DNA from: a virus
DNA: 28,204 nt
Virus record (IMG/VR): IMGVR_UViG_3300036885_000144
Coordinates: 1-28,204 of that record
Strand: one strand, 5' to 3'
Shown one piece after another: positions 7,921-9,645 of this stretch (position 1 is the first letter of the stretch; each line of letters begins with the position of its first letter). Position numbers and translations under genes: made by a program. The notes under the pieces were generated by a model. That model was not told the origin of the DNA. It did not search any database and worked only from the letters and a program-made list of their open reading frames with translations.

Positions 7921-8544
7921 ATGGCTGACAAAATTGTGAAGGATAAAGACTTCTATGAGGCGCTTTCGGCTTCTCTCGGGTGGGAACTCGACCGTCTCAG
8001 GGAACAGGTGGCGCATGAACTGAAGAACAACAAGAAGCTGTCCGACCGGCTCGCGGAGTATGACGCCGCTGACAACGACAAGATTGACAGGGCCTATTAC
8101 GAAAAAATGGAAGATTTTTACGAGGAAAGAATCAAAAATCAGTCGGGTTTAATCTCAAAACTTCAAGCCCGCATCGAGGAACTTGAGAACGCCGCCGCCG
8201 ACAGGGAACTGGACACGCCCGAAGCATACGCGCCTACTTCCGACTCCATCAACGCTCACAAGGCGGCGGGGCTGTCCGTGCCGGTAGAGGAACCGAAAGA
8301 GCCAGAGGAACGCATACGCTGCGCCGAACACGAACTGAACGCACAGGAACCGAAAGAGCCGCCGACACCCAACTTCCGAGAACTGGAAGGGATACTGAAA
8401 CCGGACGCACCCCTGGGCGACCCTGACTTAGCGCGGGAAGCAACAGGCGCTATAAACGGCCTGACGGACGCGCAGCGGGACTTGCAGAAGCGGGCAAAGT
8501 GCCTGAAGAATGAAGCGAACAAAATTGAAGGAGGGAATAAATGA
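7921..8544 (+). CDS. Hypothetical coiled-coil protein
   Basis: A 207-residue, very hydrophilic protein. Residues 18-52 and 65-95 are predicted coiled coils by heptad pattern. Residues 105-165 are proline/glutamate rich and contain two EPKEP motifs about 26 residues apart. The C-terminal 40 residues are helical again. It starts 3 nt after the previous stop and overlaps the next gene by ATGA. No family recognised; it could be a scaffold-like adaptor in replication, which is speculation. Confidence 0.65.
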   Translation: MADKIVKDKDFYEALSASLGWELDRLREQVAHELKNNKKLSDRLAEYDAADNDKIDRAYYEKMEDFYEERIKNQSGLISKLQARIEELENAAADRELDTPEAYAPTSDSINAHKAAGLSVPVEEPKEPEERIRCAEHELNAQEPKEPPTPNFRELEGILKPDAPLGDPDLAREATGAINGLTDAQRDLQKRAKCLKNEANKIEGGNK

Positions 8545-8966
8545 AGGGCATTCCATGCACGTTGAAAGAGCTTTCATTTAAGGAAGACAAGGTGATTATC
8601 ACAGTCACCACGTCGATGCCGTCACGCTTCGCGGAAGTGGCGGGCTACATCGGAGATGTAATCGTGGTAAACATCGAACCCTCACAGGGCAAGTTGCCGT
8701 TGTCCGAACTGGACGGCGAGCAGGTGGGAACCGGCGATGAACTGGTTCAGTTGCCGTTGACGATGGACGGCCAGATGCCTGAGAAGCCCGAAGGACTGGA
8801 CATGAAAGAAGTCGTCAAAGATATCCTGAAAGAGGTCGGCGAGGAAATGGCGAAAACGGAGGGTGTCACCACGTCCACGGACTGCGACGGAAAAACCCGC
8901 ATCAACTTCGACACGGCCTGGATAAACAAAAATCGCAAAAAACAAAAAGGGGGATCAAAAGCATGA
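8541..8966 (+). CDS. Hypothetical protein
   Basis: A 141-residue protein. Residues 1-75 are strand-rich (KVIITVTTSM, VIVVNIEPSQ) and could be a small beta barrel; the rest is helical with a basic tail. Small strand-rich proteins with this layout are common in recombination operons, but I do not recognise the family. The ribosome binding site GGAGGG lies just upstream, and the gene overlaps both neighbours by ATGA. Confidence 0.65.
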   Translation: MKGIPCTLKELSFKEDKVIITVTTSMPSRFAEVAGYIGDVIVVNIEPSQGKLPLSELDGEQVGTGDELVQLPLTMDGQMPEKPEGLDMKEVVKDILKEVGEEMAKTEGVTTSTDCDGKTRINFDTAWINKNRKKQKGGSKA

Positions 8967-9274
8967 GCGTGTTGTCGAAATGGTATCACAAGATTCAGGA
9001 GTATTTTTCAAAGCACCCCGTCAGCACGGATGATATGCTGAAGTGGGCGCAAATGGCCATCAAGGGGATTATGAAGTATCAACAGTACGAAAGCATGACC
9101 GACGACCAGAAACGCGCCGCCGCCGTGGACGGACTAAAAACACTGCTGTCCGGCGAAGGTCTGACGGTTTCCGATTCAATGATGAACTGGCTCGTGGAAA
9201 CGGCACTGCAACTGATGAAGAGCAATGCCGCCGTGACAGCCGCCGCGCCGGTCTCAGACACGGAAACGAAATAA
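8963..9274 (+). CDS. Hypothetical, resembles soluble part of LLH-type holins
   Basis: A 103-residue protein. Residues 50-92 (TDDQKRAAAVDGLKTLLSGEGLTVSDSMMNWLVETALQLM) follow the pattern of the C-terminal half of Holin_LLH family proteins, a helix-turn-helix arrangement after the membrane segment. No membrane segment is present here, so a holin role is not supported. It is the last gene before the tRNA-like gene, with AAGGGGGATC as its ribosome binding site. Confidence 0.55.
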   Translation: MSVLSKWYHKIQEYFSKHPVSTDDMLKWAQMAIKGIMKYQQYESMTDDQKRAAAVDGLKTLLSGEGLTVSDSMMNWLVETALQLMKSNAAVTAAAPVSDTETK

Positions 9275-9320: not shown

Positions 9321-9397
9321 AGCCCTGTAGCCAATATGGTAACGGCACCGCTCCATGAGGCGGCGGAAACAATGCGGGTTCGAGTCCCGTCAGGGCA
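9321..9397 (+). tRNA. tRNA-like gene with irregular anticodon arm
   Basis: Acceptor GCCCTG (9322-9327) pairs with CAGGGC (9391-9396). TA then a 3-bp D stem GCC/GGC with a GGTAA loop follow at 9328-9346. The T arm is textbook: GCGGG, TTCGAGT, CCCGT (9374-9390). The anticodon arm is odd: CCGCT (9348-9352) pairs with GGCGG (9359-9363), leaving a 6-nt loop CCATGA, or an 8-nt loop with one pair fewer. No standard 7-nt loop with U33 can be drawn, and the variable region is about 10 nt. CAT or CCA could be read as the anticodon. No CCA is encoded at the 3' end. It lies in an intergenic gap, as tRNA genes in phages do. Confidence 0.55.
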
Positions 9398-9435
9398 ATA
9401 AGCATAACGGCCACGGCCATATCGAGGCGGGAAAA

Positions 9436-9645
9436 GTGAAAGTCCAGATAGTTCACGAAGGAAGAAAATACACAATTAAATATCGACACACTACGGGGTT
9501 ATGTTCCCGCTTGTGCGGCTGGCTAATAGAAGTGGACGAAATCATGAAGTGCGCTCTTTTTAAAGAGGTTATCACCAACATGCACACCGGCCCGCGTTGC
9601 CAGCAGTGCATCGACGCGGAGAAAAATTCAGGAGGCGACAAGTGA
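9436..9645 (+). CDS. Small Cys-containing hypothetical protein
   Basis: A 69-residue protein with a proposed GTG start at 9436, preceded by GAGGCGGG; the longer open frame would begin inside the tRNA-like gene, which is unlikely. Cysteines at 23, 27, 39, 55 and 58 (the last two as CQQC) suggest metal binding. It overlaps the next gene at GTGA (9642-9645). First member of the run of small Cys-rich genes. Confidence 0.5.
   Translation: MKVQIVHEGRKYTIKYRHTTGLCSRLCGWLIEVDEIMKCALFKEVITNMHTGPRCQQCIDAEKNSGGDK

What the first reader, a model, noticed from the sequence alone, without database searches (positions are those of the whole stretch)
9321..9397. tRNA-like gene with an abnormal anticodon arm
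Acceptor, D and T arms are normal, but the anticodon loop is 6 or 8 nt and lacks a clear U33, and the variable region is about 10 nt, with a GGCGGCGG run that looks like a triplet expansion. It may be a decaying tRNA, an unusual frameshift-suppressing tRNA, or a decoy for host anticodon nucleases.
Basis: partly seen in the sequence, partly recalled or inferred. Interest (0 to 1): 0.55.

Follow-up and report, generated by a model that had tools for sequence, protein, structure and literature searches.

The report
Phage tRNA gene with broken anticodon arm
A virus of bacteria carries one tRNA-like gene whose body looks sound but whose codon-reading arm is misshapen, most likely a degenerating tRNA gene of a kind also seen in other phages, so it is a modest curiosity and not a new system.

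Summary
The tRNA-like element is real: window 9321-9398, +, ARAGORN call 'tRNA-???', Rfam tRNA 37.5 bits, E 1.2e-4, gathering score 29. It is the only tRNA found in the window and lies between a holin-like gene and a small ORF. The anticodon arm is abnormal: a 6-nt loop (5 bp) or 8-nt loop (4 bp) with a 10-nt variable region. A third register, using the second GGCGG, is more stable (-30.1 against -28.0 and -26.6 kcal/mol) and closes to an AUGA tetraloop. None has a U before a normal anticodon. GGCGGCGG occurs 17 times in this window, so it is no special expansion.

Among 173 other phage-record tRNAs, 5 also have 6- or 8-nt loops, so the kind is not unique. The closest sequence, Streptomyces phage NootNoot tRNA-Leu(CAA), is identical over 27 nt of the 3' half and has a normal 7-nt loop. 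No close relative of the phage covers the site. Best reading: a degenerate tRNA. Frameshift suppression and decoy are not excluded, but nothing supports them.

The parts
9321..9327 (+). acceptor stem 5' strand AGCCCUG; A1 opposes A72 (9397), the other six bases pair
9330..9346 (+). D arm, three G-C/C-G pairs, loop with GG and U15
9348..9363 (+). anticodon arm, register 1: CCGCU/GGCGG with 6-nt loop CCAUGA (or CCGC/GCGG with 8-nt loop)
9348..9366 (+). anticodon arm, register 2 (more stable): CCGCU pairs with the second GGCGG, inner CC/GG, AUGA tetraloop
9359..9366 (+). GGCGGCGG run that allows the two registers
9364..9373 (+). variable region, 10 nt in register 1 (7 nt, 9367-9373, in register 2)
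9374..9390 (+). T arm GCGGG-UUCGAGU-CCCGU, consensus loop, first pair G.U
9391..9398 (+). acceptor stem 3' strand CAGGGCA and discriminator A73; no CCA encoded
8963..9274 (+). upstream gene, holin-like (Pfam Phage_holin_6_1)
9436..9645 (+). downstream small ORF, no family; likely start GTG 9436 after a GAGGCGGG stretch, though the frame is open back to ATG 9355 in the anticodon loop

Best explanation
A degenerating phage tRNA gene (pseudo-tRNA). The phage once carried one ordinary short-variable-region tRNA, perhaps with anticodon CAU, since CAU sits in the loop. Small insertions or deletions in the anticodon arm (helped by alternative GGCGG registers), with losses at 1:72 and 15:48, left a body that should still fold, be processed and perhaps be recognised by tRNA enzymes, but no arm that can hold a normal anticodon in the ribosome. 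Shown: the structure by prediction, the abnormal arm, the mismatch, distant relatives with normal loops. Inferred: ancestry, direction of change, loss of decoding.
For: Abnormal in all three registers. Further departures outside the arm: A1.A72 (1:72 mismatches in 12 of 174 phage-record tRNAs, window included) and U15-U48 (148 of 173 others keep R15-Y48). Rfam score low: only 4 of 108 above-cut-off matches in five named phages are lower. NootNoot tRNA-Leu(CAA) shares 27 of 27 nt of the 3' half and most of the 5' acceptor strand, with a 7-nt loop. D-arm matches L005 (CAU) and L090 (CUA) have 7-nt loops. Other phage records hold tRNAs with 6- or 8-nt loops, 5 of 173; the 6-nt one in Aeromonas phage 65 is left unannotated by its depositors between two annotated tRNAs.
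Against: All T-stem pairs, six acceptor pairs, three D pairs and the T-loop consensus are intact, so the damage is concentrated in one arm, which fits selection for a tRNA-shaped body as well as it fits recent decay. No close relative with a normal loop was found at this site, so the direction of change is not shown. The NootNoot match is partly the T-arm consensus that many tRNAs share, and its E-value is 4e-4. L087 and L102 also have 1:72 mismatches, with normal loops, so that mismatch need not be decay.
Confidence: 0.58

Rival explanations
1. A functional tRNA with an unusual loop. The 8-nt loop UCCAUGAG would present CAU with C33, or a four-base anticodon, and decode AUG or act as a +1 frameshift suppressor, like SufB2 with its extra loop base.
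For: CAU is in the loop; acceptor has G2-C71, C3-G70 and A73, which I recall as methionyl-tRNA features. A phage tRNA(CAU) with C33 exists (L106, loop CCCAUAU). 8-nt loops occur in L106.
Against: The 4-bp, 8-nt form is the least stable of the registers compared (-26.6 against -30.1 kcal/mol). No frameshifted gene needing it was seen, though this was not searched systematically.
Confidence: 0.12
2. A non-decoding tRNA-shaped RNA kept by selection: a decoy for host anticodon nucleases or another tRNA-binding enzyme.
For: Damage is confined mainly to the anticodon arm while the body is kept. Phage tRNAs with anticodon-loop changes have been proposed to escape anticodon nucleases (PMC10264068, passages seen).
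Against: In that paper the phage tRNAs are proposed to be insensitive to the nucleases, not to lure them; the word decoy does not occur in its main text. No conservation of this form was found anywhere.
Confidence: 0.1
3. Part of the leader of the next gene: an RNA fold or processing site (tRNA punctuation), with ATG 9355 in the loop in frame with ORF 9355-9645.
For: Frame open from the loop ATG to 9645. In L102 and L087 an ATG in the anticodon loop is likewise in frame with the next ORF.
Against: No Shine-Dalgarno-like stretch just upstream of ATG 9355; codon score of 9355-9435 in frame (-0.07) is below the three nearby genes scored (0.06 to 0.32). L102 and L087 are syntenic with each other but not with the window, so they are at most one independent case.
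Confidence: 0.1
4. Sequencing or assembly error in an otherwise normal tRNA.
For: The site is covered by one contig only; the second contig of this phage (L001) ends before it.
Against: The two contigs differ at 2 of 4045 aligned bases with no gaps, so several errors within 20 bases are unlikely.
Confidence: 0.04
5. An attachment-site copy of a host tRNA carried by a temperate phage.
For: tRNA genes are common integration sites (recalled).
Against: No integrase among the window and L001 proteins scanned against PHROGs (not every ORF was scanned). The D-arm plus T-arm pattern has no match in 84,980 genomes. The 3' half alone was not searched there.
Confidence: 0.03

Closest known systems
Streptomyces phage NootNoot (Samistivirus) tRNA-Leu(CAA), MF347636 104033-104109
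   Same: 27 of 27 nt of the 3' half identical, same acceptor pairs 2-7, short variable region, weak 1:72 (G.U)
   Different: normal 7-nt CUCAAAA loop, different anticodon stem, different D arm
Phage tRNA(CAU) in L005/L106 (IMGVR_UViG_3300020045_003677)
   Same: nearly the same D arm (GUAGCCAA...GGUAACGGCACC), CAU in the loop
   Different: normal CUCAUAA loop, G1-C72, lies in a record with 22 tRNAs
tRNA(CAU) of L102 and L087 (records with a Sak4 relative)
   Same: lone tRNA, 1:72 mismatch (A.A and A.C), G2-C71, C3-G70, A73, G after CAU, no clear CCA
   Different: normal 7-nt CUCAUGC loop; sits between terminase-like and portal-like genes, not next to a holin
Phage tRNAs with 6- or 8-nt loops (L106 x3, Aeromonas phage 65, Synechococcus phage S-PM2)
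   Same: tRNA body with a wrong-sized anticodon loop, ARAGORN 'tRNA-???'
   Different: lie among many normal tRNAs

Membership tests
tRNA gene (Rfam RF00005) | covariance score above the curated cut-off | tested here: met
   37.5 bits against 29
tRNA gene (Rfam RF00005) | 7-bp acceptor stem | tested here: not met
   6 of 7 pairs; A1.A72 mismatch; the family itself tolerates this, 12 of 174 have a 1:72 mismatch
decoding (functional) tRNA | 5-bp anticodon stem and 7-nt loop with U33 | tested here: not met
   6-, 8- or 9-nt loop, no U before a normal anticodon; a few tRNAs work with C33 (recalled)
decoding (functional) tRNA | charged and used in infected cells | not testable with these tools
   needs RNA data
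pseudo-tRNA | close relatives with an intact version of the same gene | tested here: inconclusive
   only distant tRNAs with normal loops found; the single near-identical contig L001 stops before the site
bacterial initiator tRNA | 1:72 mismatch | tested here: met
   A1.A72
bacterial initiator tRNA | A11-U24 and three G-C pairs GGG:CCC next to the anticodon loop (recalled) | tested here: not met
   C11-G24 and stem CCGCU/GGCGG
frameshift-suppressor tRNA | extra base in an otherwise sound anticodon loop, and suppression shown | tested here: inconclusive
   8-nt reading possible but least stable; activity not testable
anticodon-nuclease decoy | binds or is cut by the nuclease in place of host tRNA | not testable with these tools
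   none

The most novel reading that the evidence does not exclude
A lone phage RNA that keeps a methionine-type tRNA body with an initiator-like open 1:72 end, but has traded its anticodon loop for a closed hairpin, so that it occupies tRNA-handling enzymes (synthetase, formyltransferase or an anticodon nuclease that cuts initiator tRNA) without taking part in translation.
Probability: 0.05. Interest if true: 0.65.

Novelty: new member of a known kind. Interest (0 to 1): 0.2.

Why it matters
If it is decay, it is one more example of how phage tRNA genes are lost, with the decoding arm hit while the body stays. If the form were kept by selection, it would be a phage tRNA mimic that does not decode, bearing on the open question of why phages carry tRNAs. 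The side result, that tRNA(CAU) genes in these phage records have an open 1:72 end more often than their other tRNAs (5 of 18 against 6 of 155), is a testable lead on phage-borne initiator-like tRNAs.

Tried and rejected
Searches for close relatives: the 8541-8966 protein gave none, the primase gave only L001, which stops before the site, the 591-aa protein gave none, a Sak4 piece gave 80 distant loci of 27-40% identity, terminase pieces gave only the L001 record again. DNA patterns: searches (4 stretches, one a tRNA; 0; 2 stretches, both tRNAs), and 48 and 49 in genomes (0 and 0). megablast of window 4001-28000 against phages: no match. Protein searches against phages gave only distant matches or none. 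Plasmids: only T-arm matches. The 5' part 9321-9376 against phages: 3 weak matches, E about 4.

Rejected: a recent 'triplet expansion' as the sole cause; by count, the arm without one triplet still has a 6-nt or an 8-nt loop, and GGCGGCGG is common here. Rejected: a true initiator tRNA, because C11-G24 and the anticodon stem do not fit. Paper searches with no hit. One paper mentions a phage tRNA of undetermined anticodon (PMC12933202, passages).

Full report
What is there. The window is a 28,204-base virus record with phage genes: an ERCC4-type nuclease, DNA primase, Sak4-like protein, SSB, holin-like protein and a lytic tail or virion protein. At 9321-9398 on the + strand ARAGORN reports one tRNA with an undetermined anticodon, and Rfam reports tRNA at 37.5 bits, E 1.2e-4, above the gathering score of 29. 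In 200 dinucleotide shuffles of the window ARAGORN made 2 calls, so a chance call is unlikely. The element lies in the spacer between the holin-like gene (8963-9274) and a small ORF whose likely start is GTG 9436.

Anatomy. The acceptor strands are AGCCCUG and CAGGGCA: six pairs form and A1.A72 does not. The D arm has three pairs and the T arm five, with a consensus T loop; A73 follows and no CCA is encoded. The anticodon arm has alternative registers. With the first GGCGG it is 5 bp and a 6-nt loop CCAUGA (-28.0 kcal/mol for the whole molecule) or 4 bp and an 8-nt loop (-26.6), with a 10-nt variable region. With the second GGCGG it is 5 bp and a 9-nt loop (-26.9) that closes further through CC/GG to an AUGA tetraloop (-30.1), with a 7-nt variable region. 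The last is the minimum-energy fold of the isolated RNA. Over the 166-nt spacer the minimum-energy fold is a different one that does not form the cloverleaf, and it is no better than shuffles (z -0.56); the isolated element folds slightly better than shuffles (z -1.82, 12 of 200 as good).

How unusual. I compared 173 other ARAGORN tRNAs from phage records: L087, L088, L102 and L101 from Sak4-bearing records, L090, L105 and L106 from D-arm matches, four loci of named phages (L107-L110), and tRNA stretches of KVP40, CcrColossus, Aeromonas 65, S-PM2 and RaK2. The set was one of convenience, so rates are rough. Five of 173 have a 6- or 8-nt loop: three in L106, one in Aeromonas phage 65 and one in S-PM2. 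A mismatch at 1:72 occurs in 12 of 174, window included. R15-Y48 is kept in 148 of 173; the window has U-U. In five named phages 112 Rfam matches were found, 108 above the cut-off, and 4 of those 108 score below the window's 37.5 bits. The 6-nt-loop tRNA of Aeromonas phage 65 is not annotated in its record although the tRNAs on both sides are. In S-PM2 the stretch has no annotated tRNA at all, so it says nothing.

Relatives. I found no close relative of the phage that covers the site. L001, 99.95% identical over 4045 bases, ends inside the primase gene. Of the 80 distant loci with a Sak4 relative, all 80 records were searched for tRNA (9, 48, 23): 5 have a match. Three of these carry a single tRNA(CAU) with a normal 7-nt loop (G002, G004, G055), one has two tRNA-Ser, and one has a 94-nt match of 37.9 bits for which ARAGORN gave no call. 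The G055 and G004 tRNAs (L102, L087) have A.A and A.C at 1:72, G2-C71, C3-G70, A73 and CUCAUGC loops. They are syntenic with each other, between terminase-like and portal-like genes (the downstream L087 protein matches portal proteins, the upstream one and those of L102 were judged by reading only), but not with the window, so shared descent with the window's tRNA is not shown. The third, G002 (L088), has a paired end.

Closest sequence. NootNoot tRNA-Leu(CAA) matches 27 of 27 nt of the 3' half (E 4e-4), shares acceptor pairs 2 to 7, and has a normal 7-nt loop. It ranks first among the 173 when the anticodon arm is left out, and the L106 tRNA(CAU) second. L005/L106 and L090 share the D arm and have 7-nt loops. 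A D-arm plus T-arm pattern had no match in 84,980 bacterial and archaeal genomes, so this looks like a phage-type tRNA and not a fresh copy of a host gene, within the limits of an exact pattern.

Interpretation. The simplest account is a degenerating tRNA gene: an abnormal arm in every register plus the changes at 1:72 and 15:48. What speaks against it is that the rest of the body is intact and that no near relative shows the intact form. A functional odd-loop tRNA, a decoy, and a role in the leader of the next gene remain open at low probability. The ATG in the loop is in frame with the next ORF, as in L102 and L087, but there is no Shine-Dalgarno-like stretch before it and the codon score is between coding and non-coding.

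Literature. PMC10264068 (passages) proposes that phage tRNAs escape anticodon nucleases through loop mutations and notes that phages generally avoid tRNA-fMet where VapC targets it. PMC12482277 (passages) reports that neither methionine tRNA of phage Sf14 is classed as tRNA-fMet. PMC7803779 on SufB2 was seen in a search listing only. I found no paper describing a phage tRNA with an 8-nt anticodon loop by searches, which cover only the open-licence library.

Side result. In the comparison set tRNA(CAU) genes have a 1:72 mismatch in 5 of 18 cases against 6 of 155 for all others (Fisher p 0.002). Three of those five also have A11-U24 (L087, KVP40, S-PM2). These are initiator features as I recall them; the records are not all independent, and the set is small.

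Noticed in passing
L087 1501-1572, L102 1500-1572, L109 4136-4210, L116 c4261-4336, L122 1625-1701: Phage tRNA(CAU) genes with an open 1:72 end, three of them with A11-U24, look initiator-like; 5 of 18 tRNA(CAU) against 6 of 155 other tRNAs have a 1:72 mismatch.
   Followed up: partly
L102 and L087: A lone tRNA(CAU) with loop CUCAUGC sits at the same place, between terminase-like and portal-like genes, and an ATG in its anticodon loop is in frame with the next ORF.
   Followed up: partly
L106 15243-15317, 15734-15809, 19447-19528: One phage record with 22 tRNAs has three with 6- or 8-nt anticodon loops and also a CUA-anticodon tRNA.
   Followed up: no
L090 c1291-1368 and c2644-2718: A 61.5-kb viral record carries two tRNAs with anticodon CUA, possible amber suppressors.
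   Followed up: no
window, 17 places including 9359-9366: The word GGCGGCGG occurs 17 times on the two strands against 1.5 expected from shuffles.
   Followed up: no
L001 5922-6196: Several copies of a roughly 46-base repeat lie next to the start of the window's sequence.
   Followed up: no
MT135303 3478-3546, MT135311 1584-1652: Inovirus records hold stretches 74-78% identical to the L102 tRNA(CAU), not annotated.
   Followed up: no
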